From Fibrobacter sp. UWB5 (GTDB taxonomy: Bacteria; Fibrobacterota; Fibrobacteria; Fibrobacterales; Fibrobacteraceae): a stretch of DNA of 64,000 nucleotides. The stretch's first letter is position 1. The number at the start of each line of letters is the position of its first letter. The stretch covers positions 248,001 to 312,000 of the forward strand of contig NZ_MWQH01000001.1 of assembly GCF_002210295.1 (NCBI RefSeq). Direction: 5' to 3'. Position numbers and translations under genes: made by a program. The notes under the pieces were generated by a model. That model was given only the letters and a program-made list of their open reading frames with translations, had not been told where the DNA came from and searched no databases. Positions 20,836 through 31,535 of this stretch are shown piece by piece.

Positions 20836-22110
20836 ATGGCTGCAATTATTTTAAATAAAATGTATACTGGGGGGTATTTGGAATCTGGCGAAAATATCGG
20901 TCATGAGATAATCAACCTGTATAAGGCGGACAATGACTGCAATTATGTGTATGTAAACGCCTATGGATGGATTGCAAAAGAATGGGATCATAAAATTTCA
21001 GAAATCCTTTTGGTCCGAATGATCAATAATGCAACATTGGAAATTCTAGGTGTTGCGTCTGACTTGCAACAAATCCTTTGCGAATATGACTATAAAAAAG
21101 AAGACGTTTTTTTTGAAGAGCAAAAAAAATATGTTCATGAAAACGGAATAAAATACGGTTCTGTATATCTCGATGAAATTATGAAGGGAAATCGAGATGA
21201 AGTGCAATATAAACCACAGTTAGTTACTTTCAGGGCTGGGAGTGTAAGACGTCCTAGTAAAACTATATATTTAACGACTGATAAATCATTGAATACAAAC
21301 GCCAATTCCCAATATTTTTATTTACCAGAATATAATTTTTCTTGCACAAGTCCAAAGATTTATTGCGATGAACAAGAGCAGCCAAAAGCACATACGGTTT
21401 TGAAAAAAATTATAGATAATTCATCATTATGGCTTAATTCTGAAAAAAGTACTGATAAGGTAAATTTGAAAAACGATATATCGTCAGAGAAATTTTCTTT
21501 CTTAACTCTTATCAAAAAGGAATACGATGAACTGTCGTATTCAAATATGTTGGAATATTTCTTTAATTTAGATAAAAATGTCTTTTTTGAGTTTTGCAAA
21601 AAAGTCTTAGGAATAAGCAATTTTAATGAGGATTATGAAATTGTTCGCGAAGTTGAGTGTAACATTGATTTACTTATAAAATCGCAAAGGCATGTAATTG
21701 TAATTGAGAATAAGATTAAGTCTGGCATAAACGGTTTTGGACACGACATAAAAACAGAGGAAGATGCAAAAAGTCAATTGGATAAATATTATACCCATGT
21801 GTGTAAAAATTATAGCGAACGTGAATGTCATTTCTTTTTATTGACTCCTAACTACAATATTATCGATCCATTGAAGTATGCGCAAAATGGAGAATACAAA
21901 TCACTGTTATACAGTGATATTTATGAATTCTTTTCTGAAGTCAAAAGTGATGTGCTGGAAAAAGACAAGTATTTTGATGATTTTAAAATAGCCCTAAAAA
22001 AACAAAGTGAACCAGTTGATAATCAGAATTTTGATATTATGCAAGATCGTTTTGTAAAGACAATTATAAAAATAAAGAATGAGTCGAGCAAAATTTCTGC
22101 TAATGGGTAG
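20836..22110 (+). CDS. PD-(D/E)XK nuclease-like protein, horizontally acquired
   Basis: 424 aa with an ideal Shine-Dalgarno (AAGGAG). The C-terminal half carries a PD-(D/E)XK-type core: 'EYFFNLDKNVFFEFC', then CNIDLLIKS, VIVIENKIKSG (the E-x-K site) and QLDKYYTH, followed by a strand and a 'LLYSDIYEFF' helix. The first about 150 residues form a separate domain (GGYLESGENIGHEIINLYKAD) that I have seen in uncharacterised proteins but cannot name. Strongly AT-rich codon use against its upstream neighbours suggests transfer. Nucleases of this type are common in defence islands, though no partner gene is evident. Confidence 0.75.
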   Translation: MAAIILNKMYTGGYLESGENIGHEIINLYKADNDCNYVYVNAYGWIAKEWDHKISEILLVRMINNATLEILGVASDLQQILCEYDYKKEDVFFEEQKKYVHENGIKYGSVYLDEIMKGNRDEVQYKPQLVTFRAGSVRRPSKTIYLTTDKSLNTNANSQYFYLPEYNFSCTSPKIYCDEQEQPKAHTVLKKIIDNSSLWLNSEKSTDKVNLKNDISSEKFSFLTLIKKEYDELSYSNMLEYFFNLDKNVFFEFCKKVLGISNFNEDYEIVREVECNIDLLIKSQRHVIVIENKIKSGINGFGHDIKTEEDAKSQLDKYYTHVCKNYSERECHFFLLTPNYNIIDPLKYAQNGEYKSLLYSDIYEFFSEVKSDVLEKDKYFDDFKIALKKQSEPVDNQNFDIMQDRFVKTIIKIKNESSKISANG

Positions 22111-22150
22111 ATGACGGTTTAAACAATCGCTTTTTATCATGATAGGTATA

Positions 22151-22174
22151 AAGCCCCTTTTTAGGGGCTTTTTT
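22151..22174 (+). terminator. Intrinsic terminator
   Basis: Stem AAGCCCC / GGGGCTT with a T6 tract, after the PD-(D/E)XK gene. Confidence 0.85.
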
Positions 22175-22251
22175 CATATCGGGACCTATCCGTCTGTAAT
22201 TGTCGCATAACCGATGTATCTTTATTGCGTCAACCTATTTTAGGAGAGAAT

Positions 22252-22458
22252 ATGACGCAAGAAGAATTGATTGATAAAGTCCACAACGAAATGTCCGGCA
22301 GAGTGCCGTTTGCCGAGGTGGTGCACCGCATTGCGAACGCCATTAGGCTAGAAGGAAAAACAAATTTCCGCACGATGTTTGCAAGGCTTGAACCGGCTTC
22401 AAGCGGATACGTCTATGCCTATCCGGATGATATTTCGGATGGTCCTTGGGATATCTAA
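22252..22458 (+). CDS. Small protein of unknown family, intact copy of a duplicated gene
   Basis: 68 aa (MTQEELIDKVHNEMSGRVPF...), with AGGAGAG before the ATG at 22252. It is predicted helical in the first half, with a C-terminal 'YVYAYPDDISDGPWDI'. A second copy with most residues conserved but an internal stop lies at 25140-25346. I do not recognise the family. It heads a run of same-strand genes; the DnaE-like fragment begins 2 nt after its stop. Confidence 0.65.
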   Translation: MTQEELIDKVHNEMSGRVPFAEVVHRIANAIRLEGKTNFRTMFARLEPASSGYVYAYPDDISDGPWDI

Positions 22459-22460
22459 TT

Positions 22461-23189
22461 GTGAACGAGACGTATATGCGAAGCGAAAACAACCAACTTT
22501 TGGAACTATATCCGCTTTCTACTATGCGGAAAATCTTGGATTGTATTGAAACAACACAGAACATTCGTGTTGACATTAGCCGCATCCCTTTAGACGATAA
22601 GAAAACACTAGATCTATTCAGGAACGGGGATACGGGGGGAGTATTCGGCTTTGACTCTCCTGACATGCAAGAATATTCGAAACAGCTGAAACCAGATAGC
22701 TTCGAAGAATTAATGATTTTATGCGCGTTATGTGGACCTGCGAGAGCGTTTAGGCCCGCGACATCTGATTTGATTACCGAATATATCGATAGAAAGAGGG
22801 GCGAATGTGGCTATGACGGCATTCATCCGGATGTAGAACAGATTATTTTGCCTACCTATGGCATGATTATTTACCAAGAGCAGGTGACGGAAATCCTTTG
22901 CAAAATTACAGGATATCCTCCAGAAAATGCAGAGGAAGTTCGTCGCATACTTGCAAAAAGAAATCCTGAAAGAATATCGAAACTTGAACCAGAATTTTTC
23001 TGTCAGTGCGAGGCCAAGGGGCATGACCAACAAATCGCTTGGCAAATTTGGGACTTGCTTTTCATATACGCAAAACATGCCGTTTGCAAAACACTTGTGT
23101 CGATTTACACCTTTGTCGCTTACCAATTTGCCTATTTGAAGGTTCATTACAAGAGCGAATTTTGTTCCGCAATAACCTGCGCAAAATAG
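22461..23189 (+). CDS. DnaE fragment: fingers region of DNA polymerase III alpha without the catalytic palm
   Basis: About 242 aa from GTG 22461 (or ATG 22476). The sequence follows the fingers segment of bacterial DnaE: IPLDDKKTLDLF, GVFGFDS, LKPDSFEELMILCAL, TYGMIIYQEQV, EVRRILAKRNPE and VAYQFAYLKVHYKSEF. The PHP domain, the palm with its PDFDxD and FDFLGL aspartates, and the C-terminal OB and tau-binding parts are all missing. The usual GFNKSHA stretch is replaced by AVCKTLV. It cannot be an active polymerase. Either it is a remnant, or a domesticated DNA- or nucleotide-binding piece inside an accessory operon; its open frame argues mildly for the latter. Confidence 0.75.
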   Translation: MNETYMRSENNQLLELYPLSTMRKILDCIETTQNIRVDISRIPLDDKKTLDLFRNGDTGGVFGFDSPDMQEYSKQLKPDSFEELMILCALCGPARAFRPATSDLITEYIDRKRGECGYDGIHPDVEQIILPTYGMIIYQEQVTEILCKITGYPPENAEEVRRILAKRNPERISKLEPEFFCQCEAKGHDQQIAWQIWDLLFIYAKHAVCKTLVSIYTFVAYQFAYLKVHYKSEFCSAITCAK

Positions 23190-23198
23190 GAGGCCCGT

Positions 23199-23906
23199 AT
23201 GACGTTAGATGAATTTCAGAAATACAAGGCGCTTAAAAGCTATGTTGAGGAATCGTATCCCGATAAAGAAGAAAGCAAAGATGTTTGGCATTCCGTCAAA
23301 CGACTGATATTAAGCTGCAACGAACATGACATCAGGCAAGATCAGCTGGAGATCTTTTTCCAAATGTCTGAAACCGGGAAACCGCTTTGTCATCTGGATG
23401 TCCTCGTAAATTCAGACGATTTTGTCTCTATTTTTGATGTCTTGGATGAGCCCTTCGTAAGCTACCCATTTACGCATTGCCTGTTGGTGTGCGACGCGGT
23501 CAAAAATACGCATCGATTTTTCTTTGTAAATCCAGATGTGTCGGGTACAAAAGATTTTTCGTTCAACAGTAAGTTGGCGCTCAGGGATTCATACATTCTG
23601 CTGAGTTCTTGTGAAGAAAGCGTGGAAAATATCGCTGATTTGATAATTCCCGAAACGGCGAAGTTCATCATCCGTTGCGTATTATGCAAGAACCGTGTTA
23701 AATATGCGGGCGTATTTGAAATAACAAGAGATTCTGCGGGAAGCATTTCTGCCGTTGAATTCAAGAACGAAGAAATAGATATGCAAGAATCGCTTTGCAA
23801 GAGAATAAAGAAATCGGTCTCGGATGCACAAAAAGTGCAAAAGCAGAACGACAACAAAGTTCTTTGGAAATGGGACGAACTCTTTCAAAAGAGTTTCAAT
23901 AAATAG
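23199..23906 (+). CDS. Protein of unknown function
   Basis: 235 aa, cytosolic, with 'AGGAGG' before the ATG at 23199. The N-terminal third is acidic and helical, followed by alternating beta segments ('THCLLVCDAVKNTHRFFFV', 'IIRCVLCKNRVKYAGVFEI') and a charged C-terminal helix. No family recognised. It lies 9 nt after the DnaE fragment and 9 nt before the next gene. Confidence 0.6.
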   Translation: MTLDEFQKYKALKSYVEESYPDKEESKDVWHSVKRLILSCNEHDIRQDQLEIFFQMSETGKPLCHLDVLVNSDDFVSIFDVLDEPFVSYPFTHCLLVCDAVKNTHRFFFVNPDVSGTKDFSFNSKLALRDSYILLSSCEESVENIADLIIPETAKFIIRCVLCKNRVKYAGVFEITRDSAGSISAVEFKNEEIDMQESLCKRIKKSVSDAQKVQKQNDNKVLWKWDELFQKSFNK

Positions 23907-23915
23907 GAACACCTT

Positions 23916-24692
23916 ATGGGTACAAGGAATTACAAGAGTGTATTCATTCTGCGCGTTTACAGATTCGATTTGTGTGAAAAGCCTGGTTACAGCGTAGACA
24001 AATACGAAATTAAACGGAATGGCTATGCTGCGCCGAGTTTTAAAATTTACGAGTCGGAAACAGGAATTTTTGAGACCTTGGCGCAGGCTGAAAAACAAAT
24101 CCGAAAGCTAACGGGTAACGAAGATATTTATAGTTTTCTTGTGGAGGAAAAACCAGTAGGCGGTACGTTTTATACTGAAGACGCCCTTTCAAGAAGACGC
24201 TACTTGAAAGATGGTAAATTGTGGCAAAAATGCGATGTTTCGAGTGTTCGCTGTTTCAATGGGAAAGATGTTGATTTAGGTGAAGTCAATTTTTATGGCC
24301 GCAATCCCCAAACCCTTCCTTTCAAGGAGGGTGACATCGTAGAAATTGCCTACAACGATTATGCGCGGCTCGCCATTATCTGGAAACTTCCGCCAAGCGT
24401 TGATTACATGAAAACTATATGGGATCAACACAAAAAACTTTGCAAAAAGAATCCTCTTAGTTCGCGCGTTCATCCTGACGAGTCTGAAGACGCCTACACA
24501 ATCCTGTTTTACTATGTGGACAAAGACGGCGAAATAAGCCACGATGTCATGCACGCGGCTGTATACGAAACATTGCCGCTTTCATTCCCCGTCTCAAGAA
24601 AAAGTGCTGCTGAACTCCGCCGCCGCCTTGAAAAGTTTAAAGACGAATATGAACGGTATGAGGATGAATGCGGAGACGTCATTCCGTTCTAA
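23916..24692 (+). CDS. Protein of unknown function
   Basis: 258 aa, cytosolic, beginning MGTRNYKSVFILRVYRFDL. The middle contains a beta-rich segment with 'LPFKEGDIVEIAYNDYARLAIIW', and the C-terminus a charged helix (AAELRRRLEKFKDEYERY). No catalytic motif seen. Same operon-like run as its neighbours; its function may be linked to the unknown protein before it. Confidence 0.6.
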   Translation: MGTRNYKSVFILRVYRFDLCEKPGYSVDKYEIKRNGYAAPSFKIYESETGIFETLAQAEKQIRKLTGNEDIYSFLVEEKPVGGTFYTEDALSRRRYLKDGKLWQKCDVSSVRCFNGKDVDLGEVNFYGRNPQTLPFKEGDIVEIAYNDYARLAIIWKLPPSVDYMKTIWDQHKKLCKKNPLSSRVHPDESEDAYTILFYYVDKDGEISHDVMHAAVYETLPLSFPVSRKSAAELRRRLEKFKDEYERYEDECGDVIPF

Positions 24693-24704
24693 AAAGGTTT
24701 TAAT

Positions 24705-25092
24705 ATGAAATACGAAGAACGCAAAAGCTCGGAATACATAAATAATATCATAGAACATCTGATTAAAGATGACCGTTTGGTTAAAGTTCAAAGGAAAATT
24801 GAAAGGGAAATTGAACTTCATCAAGATTCGCATCTCTTGGCAAGAAAGGTGCTTGCCAACCAGTGTTATTATTAAAGATACTCCCGGGAAAGAGCCTGCT
24901 GATTACAAGGAACTCAACGAATGGCACGAAGAATTAAGCTGGAACATCGAATGTCTTGAGCTCCCGGAATTTGATAACGAATACATCTGTTTTGCCATGC
25001 ACAAGTTCTTTGCCGACGGTTCTTATTCCCTTGCAGACGCCATGCGTATGAAACCAGAGGATTTTCATATTTACACCAAAATAAACATATAA
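24705..25092 (+). pseudogene. Frameshifted small gene
   Basis: Frame 1 from ATG 24705 (AAAGG upstream) encodes 56 residues, MKYEERKSSEYINNIIEHLI..., ending at TAA 24872. The +1 frame then continues with natural-looking protein (ERCLPTSVIIKDTPGKEP ... EDFHIYTKINI) to 25092. Joining the two at about 24840-24860, near AGAAAGG, would give one protein of about 128 aa. A one-base insertion, a sequencing error or programmed frameshifting could explain this. Function unknown. Confidence 0.5.
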
Positions 25093-25139
25093 ACCAAACG
25101 CCAAATAGGACAATTCCCATATTTAGCAAAGGAGTTTTT

Positions 25140-25346
25140 ATGACGCAAAAGGAATTAATTGACAAGGGCCACCGCGAAATGGTTGGCAGCGTGCCGTTCA
25201 CCGAAGTGGTTCACCGCATTGCGTAAGCCATTACCCGGGAAGGCGCCGCAGATTTCCGCACCTTGTTTGCCAGGCTTGAGCCGGCATCGAGCGCATATGT
25301 CTATGCCTACCCGAATGACCTTTCGGACGGACCGTGGGACATCTAA
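25140..25346 (+). pseudogene. Second copy of the 68-aa small gene, interrupted by a stop codon
   Basis: The reading begins MTQKELIDKGHREMVGSVPF and ends YVYAYPNDLSDGPWDI, closely matching the product of 22252-22458. Codon 29 is TAA (25224-25226) where the intact copy has AAC. The rest of the frame is undamaged, so the mutation is recent or the stop is tolerated. An AAGGAG lies upstream. Confidence 0.75.
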
Positions 25347-25393
25347 AAGCGATTGGTGTTTTTGAGTCTAAATCGCCACTTTTCTAGAAAAAT

Positions 25394-25488
25394 GCACTTT
25401 TTCGGTTGAAAAAGTGCACTCCAGCTACAATAATTCGGTTGAAAAAGTGCGTCAAAGAGTTGACAATTCGGTCGGAAAAGTGTAGTTT
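25394..25488 (+). promoter_or_regulatory. Three-copy, 33-bp-phased operator array overlapping the promoter of the DUF4143 ATPase gene
   Basis: TTCGGTTGAAAAAGTGC occurs at 25401 and 25434, and a variant (TTCGGTCGGAAAAGTG) at 25467, exactly 33 bp apart. The first copy is half of a perfect inverted repeat, GCACTTTTTC-GGTT-GAAAAAGTGC (25394-25417). The third copy fills the 17-nt spacer between TTGACA (25460-25465) and a weak -10 TAGTTT (25483-25488). The -10 ends six nt before the ATG at 25495, and no Shine-Dalgarno is present. Confidence 0.6.
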
Positions 25489-25494
25489 TATGGT

Positions 25495-26832
25495 ATGTTC
25501 AAGCGAAAAATCCTTAAAGAATTCGAAAATTGGAAAGTTTCGGGGGGCAAAAAGAAGGCCCTGGTTGTCAAAGGCATGCGCCAAATCGGCAAGACATCTA
25601 GCGTCCTGGATTTCGCCCGAACCCATTACGAAAACGTCGTCTACATCAACTTTAAGGAAAACGAAAACGCCAAGCAAGTCTTCGACAGTGACCTGAACGT
25701 GGGCAGGATTACCATCGACCTTTCGGCGCTTTTCCCAAACGCTCATTTTGTTGAAAACAAGACCGTCATCATCTTCGATGAAATTCAAGAATGCGCAAAC
25801 GCCCGCGCGAGCATCAAGCCCTTTATGGAAGATGGACGCTACGACGTTATTTGTACCGGATCCCTGCTTGGCATCAAAGGGTACAATCGTAAAAAAGGGA
25901 AAGGCGTCCCGACCGGTTTCGAAAGAATCATTTATATGAAACCCATGGATTTCGAAGAATTCCTGTGGGCTAAGGGAATTGGCGAAAACGTGATCGGTTA
26001 CCTGAAGGAATGCTACGAGAAAAAGGAACCCGTAAGCGAGGCGACGCACAATGCCATGCTCCGCTATTTCAAGGAATACCTTTGCGTGGGCGGACTCCCT
26101 TATATTGTTTCCCGTTTTGTCGAAACGAACGACATGAATGTTGTCTGGCAAGAACAGCAGGACATTCTTGAAGAATACAAGGACGATTTTGGCAAGCACC
26201 TGGACGAGAACGAAAACGAGGAAATAGATCGCACGCTTCTTGGCCGCATCAACCGCGTGTTCGATTCCATTCCCGCGCAGCTCGCAAAAGAAAACAATAA
26301 ATTTGTCTATTCTCAGCTAGAAAAGAAAGGTCGTTCTGAAAATTACCAAACCGCAATCCAGTGGCTCAACGATTGCGGCATCATCAACATCTGCTATAAT
26401 CTGACCAACATCGCAGAACCCCTTGATGGTTACAAAATCGAGAATACGTTCAAGATTTATGTGCAGGATTCCGGATTGTTTGTTGCCATGCTGGAGCGTG
26501 GAACAGCTGCAAAGATTCTAAGCGGCGATATGGGATTCTACAAAGGCGCCATCTACGAGAACATCATTGCGGATTGTTTCTCCAAACAGGGCCGCAAACT
26601 ATTCTACTTCCGCAAAGAATCTGGGCTAGAAATTGACTTTGTAGAAAATGTCGGCGGCGAACTCGCCATTATTGAAGTCAAGGCGACAACGGGGCGTTCC
26701 AAGTCGGCAAAGACCGTTCTGAGTAACGATAATTACGCAGCAAAGGTTTGCTACAAACTTTCCGAAAACAACATAGGTGTTGCTGGCAAGATGGTTACAT
26801 TGCCGTACTATATGGCAATGTTTCTGGAGTGA
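25495..26832 (+). CDS. AAA-family ATPase with DUF4143 (AAA_14 type)
   Basis: 445 aa. N-terminal AAA_14 domain with Walker A GMRQIGKTS (27-35) and Walker B VIIFDEIQEC (91-100); C-terminal DUF4143 with 'YKGAIYENIIADCF' and a PD-(D/E)XK-like FYFRKESGLEIDFV ... IIEVKAT. This architecture is abundant and variable in gut bacteria; its function is unknown, although some members sit in defence or toxin-antitoxin-like loci. It is a single gene behind a phased repeat array, which suggests autoregulation. The start at 25495 has no ribosome-binding site and may be leaderless. Confidence 0.9.
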   Translation: MFKRKILKEFENWKVSGGKKKALVVKGMRQIGKTSSVLDFARTHYENVVYINFKENENAKQVFDSDLNVGRITIDLSALFPNAHFVENKTVIIFDEIQECANARASIKPFMEDGRYDVICTGSLLGIKGYNRKKGKGVPTGFERIIYMKPMDFEEFLWAKGIGENVIGYLKECYEKKEPVSEATHNAMLRYFKEYLCVGGLPYIVSRFVETNDMNVVWQEQQDILEEYKDDFGKHLDENENEEIDRTLLGRINRVFDSIPAQLAKENNKFVYSQLEKKGRSENYQTAIQWLNDCGIINICYNLTNIAEPLDGYKIENTFKIYVQDSGLFVAMLERGTAAKILSGDMGFYKGAIYENIIADCFSKQGRKLFYFRKESGLEIDFVENVGGELAIIEVKATTGRSKSAKTVLSNDNYAAKVCYKLSENNIGVAGKMVTLPYYMAMFLE

Positions 26833-26847
26833 TTTTATAAATTGGCA

Positions 26848-26930
26848 GGGGAAAGCCTTCCCCTCGCTCGCACTGCATTGCTCGCTACCCCTTCTAGCGG
26901 GCGCTCAGTCGCCGCGCCCGCAACGCCCTA
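26848..26930. repeat. Dispersed repeat, intergenic copy
   Basis: It carries the blocks GGGGAA-A-GCCTTCCCC, CGCTA-CCCCTTC-TAGCG and CGCAACGCCC in the same order as 1350-1425. Here it separates convergent genes and its hairpins may help termination. Confidence 0.75.
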
Positions 26931-26943
26931 GGCTTGCCTTTAC

Positions 26944-29538
26944 TTATTGTGCCAAAGCCTGAAATTCTTTATCAAATACAGGCATTCTATTCTCAAGATT
27001 AAAGAAATGGAAGCCCCAAATTCTATAATCATTGTCATCGACAAACATTTTTACGGGAACAGCTTCGTCGATTAGTTGCAGCATGAATTTTTCTTTCCAA
27101 GCATCACTCTCAAGAAGTTGTGTTCCTTTGGGTTCAATGAAAATTTGAATCTGTTCAAATCCATCCGTTTTATCTTTTTGAAGAAATAAAACATAATCAG
27201 GCTCAAATCTTTCGCCATCATCAAACGAATAAATATGAAATTCTCGTTCGTTTCTAACCAAATAGACTTTACTATAAGTTTTTCTTAAATCGTCGACATA
27301 TCCTTTAAAATATGCGACAAAGGCTTTTTCTTCTGATGTTCCGAAATTGTCTGTGTAGGCAAACCAATCCTCATTAGACAAATCTATTTTCCATTCCTTT
27401 TTCACCGAAGAATCGTTTTGAGAAACTCCAACACCACCGTCATGAGGTTTTGTGTAATTGACCGTTTTGTTTCGGAATACATCACGAACATTTTTTGCCT
27501 TAAACTCTTTTGTTCCGCTATATCTCTCCTGAATATCAGAAATTGAGTTGGCAATTTTACCAAGAACATAGAAAACAGCCGAATAAAGCGTTTCTACAGC
27601 AGGTTCATCTTCTTTACACTGAATGTCTATTCGAACTTTTCCAAGATATTCGTTGTCAGTAATGAATTGTCTTGTAGATGTTAGATTAGGAAAATATGAG
27701 TGCAATGTTTTGAATTTTAAAATAGGGAATTTCATCAACGCTTTGTTGACTATGGCGTAGTTGATGTTTGCAATATCCTTAATAGTTGTATGAGTTGTTT
27801 TTAATTCAACCGCCGTTTCGGATTGGGCCGATTCTGTCATAACAGCATCAATGCCGGACATCCCAGAAGATACTCGGAAATGGTAAATGTCATCACGAAC
27901 TTTTGGCGATAAGCTATGAACATCATTTCGGTCTTTTACAATCTTCTCGTTCAAAAAAATCAAACCATGCGTATACAAATCATCTGTCTTGAAACTCTCT
28001 TTAAGAACATATTCTTGCTGAATAATCTCATCGGAATTTAAGCCAATTTCACGAAGAGCGTTTTTCAATTCAGAAACATATCTATGATCATTTTGACAAT
28101 GGTAATAAAGTGTTTCGCAAATACGTAATTCATTAGTTATGTCTTCATCATACTTTCGCTGAAATTTAGGCTGTTCTTCATCTACTCGGAACGGGCAATA
28201 CCTTGCGCCGCGTCCAATCAATTGAGCTTCTGCAGTCGTTGCTTCCGATACTTTGTTTTTGCCAGACTGTCTAGTTTCATAAAGTCGGACAATATCAAAA
28301 AGATTCAAGACGTCCCAACCTTCATCTAGTTTCTTCACCTCAAAGATAGCACGATACGGATTGTCTGCATCTTCAAGGGTATTTAGCAGGATTTGCTTCT
28401 GGGTAGCGTCCTTATCGTCATTTACTGAAACGCAGTGTTCTTCAGAAAAATCGTCTCGTATTTCCGCAGCAAGGGCGTCAAACGATATACCATTGCTTGT
28501 AAAAAAGCTAAAAGCCTTTTGCATTGCCTCGTTATTACATTCTATAGAAAGTTTTTGTAATTGCGATCCGGACAAATTCTTTACAGCATTAAGAAAAACC
28601 TCCATAAATTCTTTACTGTCTGCGATTTTTGCAGCCTTAAAAAGAACTATGGGCTTGATAGCAAGTCTATTTTTCTGGAAAATTTTCAAGCGGTATTGGC
28701 TAAGGACAAGAGCTTGTAAAGCTCTGTTTATACGAGATAAATCTGAGCGAAGGGTGAGAATGTCCTTGGAATATTTGTCATTGTAGAATTTTGAAAGCGT
28801 ATAATCGAAGACGATTTTGTTTTCATAGGATGCTTGAATCGACTTGTTGGCAAGATCGCATGTTGCCGTAAATTCAAGTAAGATATTGTCAGTATTTCTT
28901 CCAAAAATATTTTTTACTGTTTGTTCCCAGGTCCGAAAATCATCTTCCTCGTCTTTCTTTTTCTTAGATTTTGTTTCAACATTCAAATGATGTGCTTCGT
29001 CTGAAATTAGAACAACTTTCTGATTGTCAAAATCATCAAAGGTCATCCCATTTTCTTTCGGGAACCACATATCCATATGCAAGCCCTGTGTTGTCGCAAA
29101 ACGGATATTGATTGAGTCAGGTTCTGCATATTGAAAATTTTCTACTTGGTTGATGCGAATTCGCTCGCCATCAATAACGATTTCGTCGGCAAACAAATAT
29201 TTGGAGGCAATCGGATTACAGAAATTTTCTTTTGTCTTTTCAACAATGTTTGACAAGTTGACGAAAAAAAGGAAATTGCGATACCCTTGTTTATAGAGAT
29301 ATAGCATTAACCCTGCCATAATCAAGGTTTTTCCACTTCCTGTTGCCATGTGGAATAAAACTTGCAAAGGATTTGGGCGTTTTTCGCTTTCATAATATGT
29401 TATAAAATTTTCAAAAGCCTCTTTTTGATAAGGTCGTAATTCAAATTTCGAATTTAGGTTGCGAGGTATGTAATCTGGAAGCGAAACACTATGGCCTTGA
29501 TCTCGTAAAAAGTCTATGTTCTCGTATAAAAATGCCAT
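26944..29538 (-). CDS. Type III restriction enzyme, Res subunit
   Basis: 864 aa. Superfamily 2 helicase with Walker A MATGSGKT (64-71), the DEAH-type box SDEAHH and the motif VI-like stretch LIGRGARYCPF. The C-terminal nuclease domain shows a PD-(D/E)XK pattern (FEPDYVLFL ... IFIEPKG). Res subunits translocate or slide along DNA and cut only in complex with Mod. It starts 5 nt after mod, forming a mod-res operon. The length is normal for this family. The gene is AT-rich compared with core genes. Confidence 0.93.
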   Translation of the reverse strand: MAFLYENIDFLRDQGHSVSLPDYIPRNLNSKFELRPYQKEAFENFITYYESEKRPNPLQVLFHMATGSGKTLIMAGLMLYLYKQGYRNFLFFVNLSNIVEKTKENFCNPIASKYLFADEIVIDGERIRINQVENFQYAEPDSINIRFATTQGLHMDMWFPKENGMTFDDFDNQKVVLISDEAHHLNVETKSKKKKDEEDDFRTWEQTVKNIFGRNTDNILLEFTATCDLANKSIQASYENKIVFDYTLSKFYNDKYSKDILTLRSDLSRINRALQALVLSQYRLKIFQKNRLAIKPIVLFKAAKIADSKEFMEVFLNAVKNLSGSQLQKLSIECNNEAMQKAFSFFTSNGISFDALAAEIRDDFSEEHCVSVNDDKDATQKQILLNTLEDADNPYRAIFEVKKLDEGWDVLNLFDIVRLYETRQSGKNKVSEATTAEAQLIGRGARYCPFRVDEEQPKFQRKYDEDITNELRICETLYYHCQNDHRYVSELKNALREIGLNSDEIIQQEYVLKESFKTDDLYTHGLIFLNEKIVKDRNDVHSLSPKVRDDIYHFRVSSGMSGIDAVMTESAQSETAVELKTTHTTIKDIANINYAIVNKALMKFPILKFKTLHSYFPNLTSTRQFITDNEYLGKVRIDIQCKEDEPAVETLYSAVFYVLGKIANSISDIQERYSGTKEFKAKNVRDVFRNKTVNYTKPHDGGVGVSQNDSSVKKEWKIDLSNEDWFAYTDNFGTSEEKAFVAYFKGYVDDLRKTYSKVYLVRNEREFHIYSFDDGERFEPDYVLFLQKDKTDGFEQIQIFIEPKGTQLLESDAWKEKFMLQLIDEAVPVKMFVDDNDYRIWGFHFFNLENRMPVFDKEFQALAQ

Positions 29539-29543
29539 TGTTG

Positions 29544-31535
29544 CTATTCTCCATAGAAACTTCTCGTGAAAGCCTTATCCTCTTCGGGAATGGCAAATTC
29601 TGTATCATCAATATCGCAATAGTTTACATACAGAAGGTTTTTGTCAAGAATTTCCATAAGGAAGGTTTTTTGATCATCAAGAGAAAGGTCTGAAAAATCT
29701 TCGGCTGCCGAAGCGATTTCTTTCGGATTTACTTTATGGCTAATAAATCCCGACTGAATCATTTTATTGTAGATGATTGAAAGCGAGGCTTTATCTGTTG
29801 CAGCTTCAATTTCTTCAACGATGGCTTGATTTTGTTTGGCGAGTTCACAATAGACAAATGAACCTCCTCCTTGCCATCCATAATTGATGGAAACACCTCT
29901 CGTATCACCAATAATGGTATTGTACAATCTCTGACAGGTAATGTCCTTAATATAATCCATCTGTTCGCAAAGAATGAATTTTCGATTCATTTTCATTGCG
30001 ACAGCTCCTGTTGTTCCTGAGCCGGCAAAGAAATCTATGACGGTATCGCCTTCATTTGTACACAGTTCTAATATTCGGGAAATTAATTTTTCAGGTTTTT
30101 TCCCTTTCTTTAATACAACTCCACCTTCATTATGAATGTCATTTGGAAGGACATCATCCCAAATATCAGAAATCGGCTGACTAAATGTCATTTTCCCATC
30201 AATATTTGCTAGACGGTCAGAAAGGAACAGTATTAATTTGCCTCCTTTTACGTAGTAAGGTTTTTCCTCATTCCCTCGATCAAGGTACATTACATGGTCC
30301 GGATTCTGAAGAGAAATGTTTTTCAGTTCTCTTGCCTGTTGGCTAATATTGTCATCATCAAGTGTTGCTAATTGACAAATACGTTCGGAATGTGCTAATA
30401 CAAATGCCTCTAAGGCTTCATTAAAGCCTTCTTTTCCATAGTACGATTTTAACTTTGATTTTTGAACGCCAGTCTCTTTCGCAAACTCTTCTAGAACAGT
30501 AGAAAATTCCCAATTCTCATACCCTTCATCAAAATGAAGAATGTAATTTCCGTAACGAGAATCATATTCTCTAGCACACAAAACCCGATTTGGCTTCCAC
30601 AAAGTAGATTTTTTGCTGTAAATCACAACATACTCAACTAAATTTACTACACCTGGGTTTATCACTTTTGCCCCAGTGACAGAACCTCGTTTTACAGTGA
30701 TTATATTTTTTCGGTTTTCTTTACCAAACACCTCATCAAGCAATACCAGTAAATAACCTATCTCGTAATTATCGACGGAGATAGCGATTGTTCCTTCCGG
30801 TTTTAAAAGAGTATGAGCTATTTCAAGTCGATTTTTCATAAAGCATAACCAAGTGCTGTGATTGAATCGATCGTTGTAGCCGAAACTGTCATTACCAGTA
30901 TTGTATGGAACATCTATATACACACACTTGATTTCTCCTTCAAATCGCTTTTTTATTGACGCTATTGAAAGAAGATTGTTTCCTTTAATGACAAGATTAT
31001 CTGCATTTGTGTACTCAATCCCGCATTCTTCTTTTATCGCTTTATTTTCGAGGCTATATCTCCTTGCGTTAACAAGAACCTTTGGATAAAGAAGTCTGTC
31101 AATTTCATCAGGAGCCAATGTTTCGTTATAGAAAATTTCATCTCTTTTTTGATCTTCTTTTGTCTGACCACCTTCTAGAACGCAGTCCTTGTACGGAAAT
31201 ACGAGCTCCACATTCTCTGATGATGAGATCAGATCTCCATTTCCATCAGTGAGACCAATTTTATTTTTGAAACGAGTGTAACTGTTCGGCAAGAACTGAC
31301 GATTGTTGATAATCCACGCGAAAAGCGCTTTGTCAAAAACCTTGACACCAGCGACATCCGTGAAAAAGCGGGAACAAGTATCTTTGTTTGACAAAAGAAG
31401 TTTAATGAGATTTTCGTCCATCTTCATTGCCGCTTCATAAACAGCATTACGGAGAATCATGCCGCTTTCAGACAAAAAACGTTTGTCTGTTCTCAAAACC
31501 GAGAGTAGTGTCTCATAAAAATTCGTTTTACTCAT
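29544..31535 (-). CDS. Type III DNA methyltransferase, Mod subunit
   Basis: 663 aa beta-class N6-adenine methyltransferase. The catalytic motif IV is DVPY (208-211, in CVYIDVPYNTGND) rather than the textbook DPPY; I believe this variant exists in one Mod subfamily. The SAM-binding motif is FFAGSGTTG near residue 505. The target recognition region is between them. Mod methylates one strand of an asymmetric site and directs Res. The ATG at 31535 has GAGG upstream. A structured RNA (31586-31792) ends about 50 nt upstream of the start codon on the same strand. Confidence 0.92.
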   Translation of the reverse strand: MSKTNFYETLLSVLRTDKRFLSESGMILRNAVYEAAMKMDENLIKLLLSNKDTCSRFFTDVAGVKVFDKALFAWIINNRQFLPNSYTRFKNKIGLTDGNGDLISSSENVELVFPYKDCVLEGGQTKEDQKRDEIFYNETLAPDEIDRLLYPKVLVNARRYSLENKAIKEECGIEYTNADNLVIKGNNLLSIASIKKRFEGEIKCVYIDVPYNTGNDSFGYNDRFNHSTWLCFMKNRLEIAHTLLKPEGTIAISVDNYEIGYLLVLLDEVFGKENRKNIITVKRGSVTGAKVINPGVVNLVEYVVIYSKKSTLWKPNRVLCAREYDSRYGNYILHFDEGYENWEFSTVLEEFAKETGVQKSKLKSYYGKEGFNEALEAFVLAHSERICQLATLDDDNISQQARELKNISLQNPDHVMYLDRGNEEKPYYVKGGKLILFLSDRLANIDGKMTFSQPISDIWDDVLPNDIHNEGGVVLKKGKKPEKLISRILELCTNEGDTVIDFFAGSGTTGAVAMKMNRKFILCEQMDYIKDITCQRLYNTIIGDTRGVSINYGWQGGGSFVYCELAKQNQAIVEEIEAATDKASLSIIYNKMIQSGFISHKVNPKEIASAAEDFSDLSLDDQKTFLMEILDKNLLYVNYCDIDDTEFAIPEEDKAFTRSFYGE

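What the first reader, a model, noticed from the sequence alone, without database searches (positions are those of the whole stretch)
25394..25494. 33-bp-phased repeat array integrated with a leaderless promoter of a DUF4143 ATPase
Three copies of TTCGGTTGAAAAAGTG begin at 25401, 25434 and 25467, exactly three helical turns apart. The third fills the spacer between TTGACA and the -10, and the first makes a perfect 10-bp inverted repeat. The -10 is six nt from the ATG. This is a compact design for cooperative repression, possibly by the ATPase itself. It offers a handle on the function of this common but obscure family.
Basis: seen in the sequence. Interest (0 to 1): 0.62.

Follow-up and report, generated by a model that had tools for sequence, protein, structure and literature searches.

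The report
Private operator arrays of DUF4143 ATPases
A very common bacterial and archaeal gene of unknown function, suspected of fighting viruses, usually carries just upstream a row of short DNA repeats set about 33 letters apart, with a repeat sequence that differs from one gene to the next, which suggests that each protein reads its own private address to control itself.

Summary
The array is real and conserved, and it is one case of a feature of the whole gene family. Copies start at 25401, 25434 and 25467; the third is 14/16 identical and fills the 17-nt spacer between TTGACA and TAGTTT. All 19 orthologues of 95% identity or more in 80 Fibrobacter genomes carry it. Repeats and promoter hexamers are conserved; spacers are not. 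Array and gene form one ~1.45-kb unit at several sites. The protein is a STAND-like ATPase with a winged helix and a PD-(D/E)XK domain; PADLOC calls it PDC-S01, a phage-defence candidate without mechanism. Across phyla, 157 of 209 relatives carry a significant three-copy array, 155 of them with period 31-35 bp, against 10 of 260 neighbouring genes and 1 of 20 sister-family ATPases. The spacing is constant but the sequence is private: repeat similarity follows the protein, not the host genome (0.362 within a genome, 0.363 between). Most likely the ATPase binds its own array and represses itself. Binding and repression are inferred, not shown. I found no description of this in the papers searched.

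The parts
25393..25418 (+). Inverted repeat made by the left arm 25393-25403 and copy 1 (arm 25408-25418), 11-nt arms, 4-nt loop
   Evidence: I4, 100% complementary; left-arm columns 25391-25400 are 84% conserved on average in 13 orthologue arrays
25401..25416 (+). Repeat copy 1, TTCGGTTGAAAAAGTG
   Evidence: mean column conservation 0.91 in 13 orthologue arrays
25434..25449 (+). Repeat copy 2, TTCGGTTGAAAAAGTG
   Evidence: mean column conservation 0.98
25460..25465 (+). -35-like hexamer TTGACA
   Evidence: conservation 0.97, against 0.65 for the preceding spacer
25467..25482 (+). Repeat copy 3, TTCGGTCGGAAAAGTG, inside the 17-nt promoter spacer
   Evidence: conservation 0.97
25483..25490 (+). 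-10-like element TAGTTTTA; TAGTTT 25483-25488 is invariant in 13 of 13 aligned arrays
25495..26832 (+). CDS of the AAA_14-DUF4143 ATPase, 445 aa, PADLOC candidate PDC-S01
   Evidence: start supported by homologues aligned from residue 1
25573..25596 (+). Walker A, residues 27-34 (GMRQIGKT)
   Evidence: G27, R29, Q30, G32, K33 invariant in 76 sequences
26230..26406 (+). Predicted winged-helix region, about residues 246-304; candidate DNA reader
   Evidence: AF2 helices 246-264 and 281-293; the matches 2qen and 2fna_A span residues 1-334; the assignment as winged helix is mine
26530..26829 (+). Predicted PD-(D/E)XK domain, about residues 346-445
   Evidence: E355, E394 and K396 invariant, D381 at least 90%; nuclease-dominated structural matches, best Z 6.8

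Best explanation
The array is the operator of a self-contained, self-regulating gene. Shown here: a promoter with one repeat between its two hexamers and two more copies upstream at 33-bp steps, conserved in all close orthologues, inherited together with the gene, and matched across phyla by arrays of the same spacing but a private sequence for each ATPase lineage. Inferred: the encoded ATPase (STAND-like NTPase, winged helix, PD-(D/E)XK domain) binds one repeat per unit on roughly one face of the DNA, assembles along the array, and its occupancy of the copy inside the promoter keeps RNA polymerase out. A potentially dangerous nuclease is thereby held at low level, and the gene can be expressed safely after transfer to a new host because it brings its own operator and reader. 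Loss of the protein from the array, for instance when it is titrated or its nucleotide state changes during infection, would then raise expression. Because each paralogue has its own repeat, many copies can coexist in one genome without cross-control.
For: Conservation: 19 of 19 orthologues of 95% identity or more have the array. In 13 of them the copies are 0.91-0.98 conserved, the promoter hexamers 0.97-1.0, the spacers 0.65-0.75. The only three matches to the relaxed motif in the genome are at this gene. Family-wide: 63 of 77 relatives and 94 of 132 further paralogues have p<=0.01 arrays, 155 of 157 with both lags 31-35 bp, against 10 of 260 neighbouring genes, 5 of 75 downstream regions and 3 of 77 stretches inside the same genes, and 1 of 20 PF01637 ATPases of Fibrobacter and relatives. 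Private to the protein: repeat similarity 0.362 for same-genome pairs and 0.363 for different-genome pairs (label permutation 265 of 500 at or above observed), rising to 0.749 at 75% protein identity or more. Fibrobacter relatives at 83-84% identity have a different left half (CCCTTG type) and the same right half (5 of 5). Protein: winged-helix-containing ATPase and nuclease-like domain. A precedent for repression of a defence-island promoter through three direct repeats is RptR (PMC12255303, abstract and outline read).
Against: No binding, footprint, transcript or expression data. Covariation between repeat and protein was not resolved to a reading helix: the signal was spread over the protein, somewhat stronger in the C-terminal half (mean Z 0.30-0.34 for residues 241-380 and 401-445, 0.22 for 381-400, against 0.15-0.27 N-terminally), and an earlier sliding-window test gave no clear domain. 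Linkage alone would make the repeat follow the gene to some degree. 52 of 209 relatives have no significant three-copy array at p<=0.01. In another DUF4143 subfamily 19 of 28 genes tested had no array and the other 9 had a 23-bp period. A perfect -10 element lies at the edge of the last copy in only 34 of 172 arrays, so promoter overlap is certain for Fibrobacter and not shown for all.
Confidence: 0.62

Rival explanations
1. The array is mainly the cis-acting site of the element itself, for movement, copy control or self-marking: the ATPase-nuclease gathers on its own array for homing, transposition-like transfer, or to stay parked in an inactive state. Control of expression would be secondary.
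For: Array plus gene behave as one unit with 5' boundary at the array in 12 of 12 comparisons and 3' boundary just after the stop. Solo arrays without the orthologue exist (L009, L014, second array of L019). The family is found across phyla at high identity (77% in Spirochaetales).
Against: No target-site duplication or terminal repeat seen; the array is only on the 5' side (5 of 75 downstream regions, two of them apparently belonging to the next DUF4143 gene); copy 3 lies inside a conserved promoter.
Confidence: 0.2
2. The array is an activating site: the ATPase or a partner bound upstream recruits RNA polymerase.
For: Two of three copies lie upstream of the -35; copies visible elsewhere are often entirely upstream.
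Against: Copy 3 lies between -35 and -10 in all 13 aligned Fibrobacter arrays, a position typical of repressors (established knowledge).
Confidence: 0.1
3. A host regulator, not the ATPase, binds the repeats.
For: Some defence genes are controlled by separate regulators, for example RptR.
Against: Paralogues in one genome do not share repeats more than genes of different genomes do (0.362 and 0.363); the window genome has no other copies.
Confidence: 0.05
4. Chance or neutral tandem duplication, or an RNA-level element.
For: The loose pattern count in the window is at chance level.
Against: Copies conserved and spacers not; fixed 32-33 bp period across phyla; copy 3 lies upstream of any start from its own promoter, so it would not be in that transcript.
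Confidence: 0.02

Closest known systems
PDC-S01 (PADLOC phage-defence candidate; AAA_14 PF13173 plus DUF4143 PF13635)
   Same: The window protein matches PDC-S01 models over its whole length (best E 4e-142). PMC12988326 (passages read) counts it as the fourth most common defence across all prokaryotes.
   Different: The passages read give no mechanism and no array; library searches for DUF4143, PF13635, PF13173 and PDC-S01 showed no paper whose listing or passages describe one.
RptR and its operator (repressor of a type I R-M/DarTG2 defence island, PMC12255303; abstract and outline read)
   Same: Three direct repeats in a defence promoter bound by a repressor.
   Different: RptR is a small separate regulator with a 6-bp palindromic site that is conserved across hosts; here the presumed reader is the ATPase itself and each gene has its own repeat.
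Plasmid iterons and their Rep initiators (recalled)
   Same: Direct repeats phased on the helix beside the gene of a winged-helix protein, often with autorepression.
   Different: Iterons are about two turns (recalled) and belong to origins; here the period is about three turns, the locus is on a 1.03-Mb contig, and no origin function was tested.
STAND/NLR and archaeal MNS-type ATPases (2qen, 2fna, CED-4, Avs5)
   Same: Residues 1-335 resemble them (Z 15.8, 15.2, 14.1 and 10.9).
   Different: C-terminal PD-(D/E)XK-like domain and private arrays; the sister family PF01637 in Fibrobacter and relatives lacks arrays in 19 of 20 genes tested.

Membership tests
AAA_14-DUF4143 ATPase (PF13173 + PF13635) | Both Pfam domains above gathering score | tested here: met
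   105.1 bits against 28.1 and 81.8 against 27
PDC-S01 (PADLOC candidate) | Full-length match to its models | tested here: met
   472 bits, residues 1-444 of 445; PADLOC's own cut-off is not printed
Anti-phage defence system | Protection against phage | not testable with these tools
   Only neighbourhood: a type III R-M pair lies directly downstream
STAND-type ATPase | Walker A and B and NOD-like fold with winged helix | tested here: inconclusive
   Walker motifs conserved; best structural matches 2qen Z 15.8 and CED-4 Z 14.1; oligomerisation untested
PD-(D/E)XK nuclease | Catalytic D and ExK on the fold | tested here: inconclusive
   E355, E394, K396 invariant and D381 at least 90% in 76 sequences; nuclease-dominated list but best Z 6.8; activity untested
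Autoregulated operator | Sites overlap the gene's own promoter | tested here: met
   Copy 3 fills the -35/-10 spacer, conserved in 13 of 13 aligned arrays; the promoter itself is predicted from sequence
Autoregulated operator | Gene product binds and represses | not testable with these tools
   Only indirect: repeat follows the protein
Iteron replicon | Origin function on a replicon | not tested
   The locus is on a 1,030,171-base contig
Insertion element | Terminal repeats and target-site duplication | tested here: inconclusive
   Unit boundaries found, no duplication seen at the one site compared

The most novel reading that the evidence does not exclude
PDC-S01 genes form a very large family of one-gene, self-addressed immune or mobile modules. 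Each ATPase-nuclease assembles on its own private three- to five-copy, about 33-bp-phased array, which is both its operator and its resting platform; release from the array, caused by infection, at once switches on expression and frees the nuclease. The private repeat makes the modules orthogonal, so that dozens can share a genome and move between phyla without cross-talk.
Probability: 0.22. Interest if true: 0.88.

Novelty: new variant of a known kind. Interest (0 to 1): 0.74.

Why it matters
The family is counted as the fourth most common defence candidate across prokaryotes (PMC12988326, passages) and I found no mechanism for it. A private, sequence-defined site that can be read from each genome gives an immediate handle: the ligand for binding and structural work, a reporter for what triggers the system, and a ready-made set of orthogonal protein-DNA pairs. 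It also gives a sequence signature for finding and classifying members.

Tried and rejected
Same repeat as a Fibrobacter-wide regulon: rejected, only three copies in the window genome, all here.

Phage-borne arrays: the two-copy pattern has 0 matches in viral contigs, and only 20 viral-contig loci encode a relative; no decoy or phage origin pursued.

Mapping the reading residues: sliding partial correlation, mutual information in two versions and clade comparison gave no clear patch. Residue 268 in the winged-helix region (N with TTCGGT repeats, K with CCCTTG repeats) is only a lead: it is one of 17 shared differences, and one of the three reference spirochaete proteins was not extracted.

Transposon-like insertion: no target-site duplication found; at the one site compared, the neighbouring gene is cut in occupied genomes and intact in the window genome and two others, and the 3' side does not restore it.

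Promoter overlap for the whole family: only 34 of 172 arrays have a perfect -10 (TATAAT 14, TAnnTTTG 20) within -2 to +8 of the last copy, so not claimed for all.

Rows dropped: 3 of 80 relatives with too little upstream DNA (L047, L074, L100); 1 of 80 second-batch paralogues for the same reason (L300); 7 of 139 paralogues removed as present in loci already used, one of which (L197) is a distinct gene lying in another locus; 2 of 22 PF01637 loci without a usable frame, and 8 of the 30 fetched not examined; 2 of 30 phylum loci without a full frame. Alignment A1 used 75 of 80 relatives plus the window. In one search, 8 Fibrobacter loci with no ATG near the start and 1 in which no frame was found were not scored. 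The host-versus-protein test used only genes with a strong array (156 genes).

Full report
What is there. The finding's coordinates are right. Two identical 16-mers and a third copy with two changes begin at 25401, 25434 and 25467; the third occupies the 17-nt spacer between TTGACA and TAGTTT, and the ATG of a 445-aa AAA_14-DUF4143 protein follows 6 nt later. Copy 1 forms a perfect inverted repeat with 11-nt arms. In the whole genome the relaxed motif occurs only at these three places.

Is it conserved? A two-copy pattern was found in 15 of 80 Fibrobacter genomes including the window's own; 13 are upstream of the orthologue and 2 (L009, L014) are solo arrays near other DUF4143 genes. A protein search then gave the full denominator: 19 orthologues of 95% identity or more in the 80 genomes, and 19 of 19 have the three-copy array, the promoter hexamers (one has TAGCTT) and the 6-nt gap. 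In 13 aligned arrays the copies are 0.91-0.98 conserved, TTGACA 0.97, TAGTTT 1.0, the two spacers 0.75 and 0.65, and the six bases before the ATG 0.80. This is the pattern expected of a promoter with operators. The short, poorly conserved gap before the ATG fits leaderless expression but does not prove it.

Unit. Comparing the window with 12 other orthologue loci, shared DNA begins at 25370-25398 and ends at 26830-26945, that is from the array's first copy to just past the stop codon at 26832, while the flanks are mostly unrelated. The loci fall at several sites. So array and gene are inherited and moved together. At one site the window genome and two others keep a gene intact that is cut where the unit sits in two other genomes; no target duplication was seen.

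Family-wide. Relatives of the protein were collected by protein similarity only. Of the 77 with enough upstream DNA (80 found), 63 have a three-copy phased array at p<=0.01 by dinucleotide shuffling; of 132 further paralogues taken from the 75 genomes searched do; 155 of these 157 have both lags between 31 and 35 bp, with 32 and 33 dominating. Controls: 10 of 260 other genes in the same loci, 5 of 75 regions downstream of the same genes (two of which appear to belong to the next DUF4143 gene), 3 of 77 stretches inside them, and 1 of 20 ATPases of the sister family PF01637 from Fibrobacter and relatives. In the first control test the top scorers turned out to be neighbouring DUF4143 genes with their own arrays. 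Against universality: 52 of 209 lack a significant array, and in another DUF4143 subfamily 9 of 28 have a 23-bp period and 19 of 28 have none. The members span Fibrobacter, spirochaetes, Firmicutes, Bacteroidota, Verrucomicrobia and an archaeon by record title.

Private sequence. The spacing is constant but the repeat is not: for example TCCCTTGAAAAAGTG in spirochaete members, TCGTTGGAAAAAGTG in Bacteroidales, TGGAATTTTGTGA in Clostridia. Among 156 strong arrays from 67 genomes, repeat similarity is 0.362 for pairs in the same genome and 0.363 for pairs in different genomes (genome labels shuffled: 265 of 500 as high), while between genomes it rises from 0.35 below 40% protein identity to 0.749 at 75% or more. 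When the nearest protein elsewhere is at least 60% identical, its repeat is closer than that of any paralogue at home in 52 of 63 cases, and in 82 of 127 over all cases. Within Fibrobacter, the 83-84% identical clade (5 of 5) has CCCTTG-type copies 1 and 3 in place of CGGTTG, with the same right half. A common host regulator would make the arrays of one genome alike; they are not. The only gene always beside the array is the ATPase.

The protein. AlphaFold2 gives pLDDT 91.7. Residues 1-335 resemble archaeal ATPases 2qen and 2fna (Z 15.8 and 15.2) and then STAND proteins such as CED-4 and plant NLRs. The C-terminal 150 residues, folded alone (pLDDT 91.9), match mostly PD-(D/E)XK nucleases at modest Z (best 6.8, McrBC complex), and E355, E394 and K396 are invariant with D381 at least 90% in 76 sequences. 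PADLOC names the protein PDC-S01. PMC12988326 (passages) ranks PDC-S01 fourth among defences in all prokaryotes, with 9986 in archaea and 29,494 in bacteria; PMC13356809 (passages) finds it the most frequent individual locus in the rumen. The downstream neighbours are a type III R-M pair.

Mechanism. Most likely the ATPase reads its own array and represses its own promoter, with cooperative assembly along sites about three turns apart. Shown: sites, promoter overlap by sequence, conservation, co-inheritance, private specificity. Inferred: binding, repression, cooperativity, and the trigger. Attempts to find the reading residues by covariation were not conclusive. The main rival is that the array serves the element itself (parking, homing or copy control); the two are not exclusive.

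What is known. The library searches made gave no paper on arrays at these genes; DUF4143 appears in one paper, PF13635 in none. This covers only the open-access library. The closest described case is RptR, a separate small repressor that binds three direct repeats in a defence-island promoter (PMC12255303, abstract and outline).

Verdict. A small observation that was largely right and that opens a family-wide regularity. It is a new variant of a known kind (phased operator arrays) with unusual reach. I score interest 0.74.

Noticed in passing
L123, L126, L128, L129, L131, L132, L133, L136, L139 (upstream of ATG): A different DUF4143 subfamily has arrays of the motif ATATGATTTTCATAAA at 23-bp steps, about two turns instead of three (9 of 28 genes tested).
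   Followed up: partly
L009 and L014 near 1491-1610 (oriented), L019 near 1241-1290 (oriented): Solo two-copy arrays of the window type without the orthologue, two of them followed by a second, different repeat pair and another DUF4143 gene, as if modules pile up at one site.
   Followed up: partly
L038, L046, L084 (and L031, L059): Neighbouring DUF4143 genes, each with its own distinct array, lie in one locus.
   Followed up: partly
window 22251-22458 and 25139-25346: Two stretches in the window are 79% identical; the second is a decayed ORF just upstream of the array.
   Followed up: no
window 24870-25093: Part of a 107-aa ORF without Pfam match has 77-80% relatives in several Fibrobacter genomes, including upstream of the solo arrays L009 and L014.
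   Followed up: no
window 20836-31535: Defence-island-like surroundings: a PDDEXK_4 protein, a 247-aa ORF holding a DNA polymerase III alpha finger domain, and a type III R-M pair.
   Followed up: no
window 26847-26895: Dispersed repeat GGCAGGGGAAAGCCTTCCCC... right after the gene, also found at other places in related loci.
   Followed up: no
L005, L006, L007 (paralogues in the window's genome): By eye they too carry repeats of their own just upstream; only a close relative of L005 was scored (L492, p=0.016, period 32-33).
   Followed up: partly
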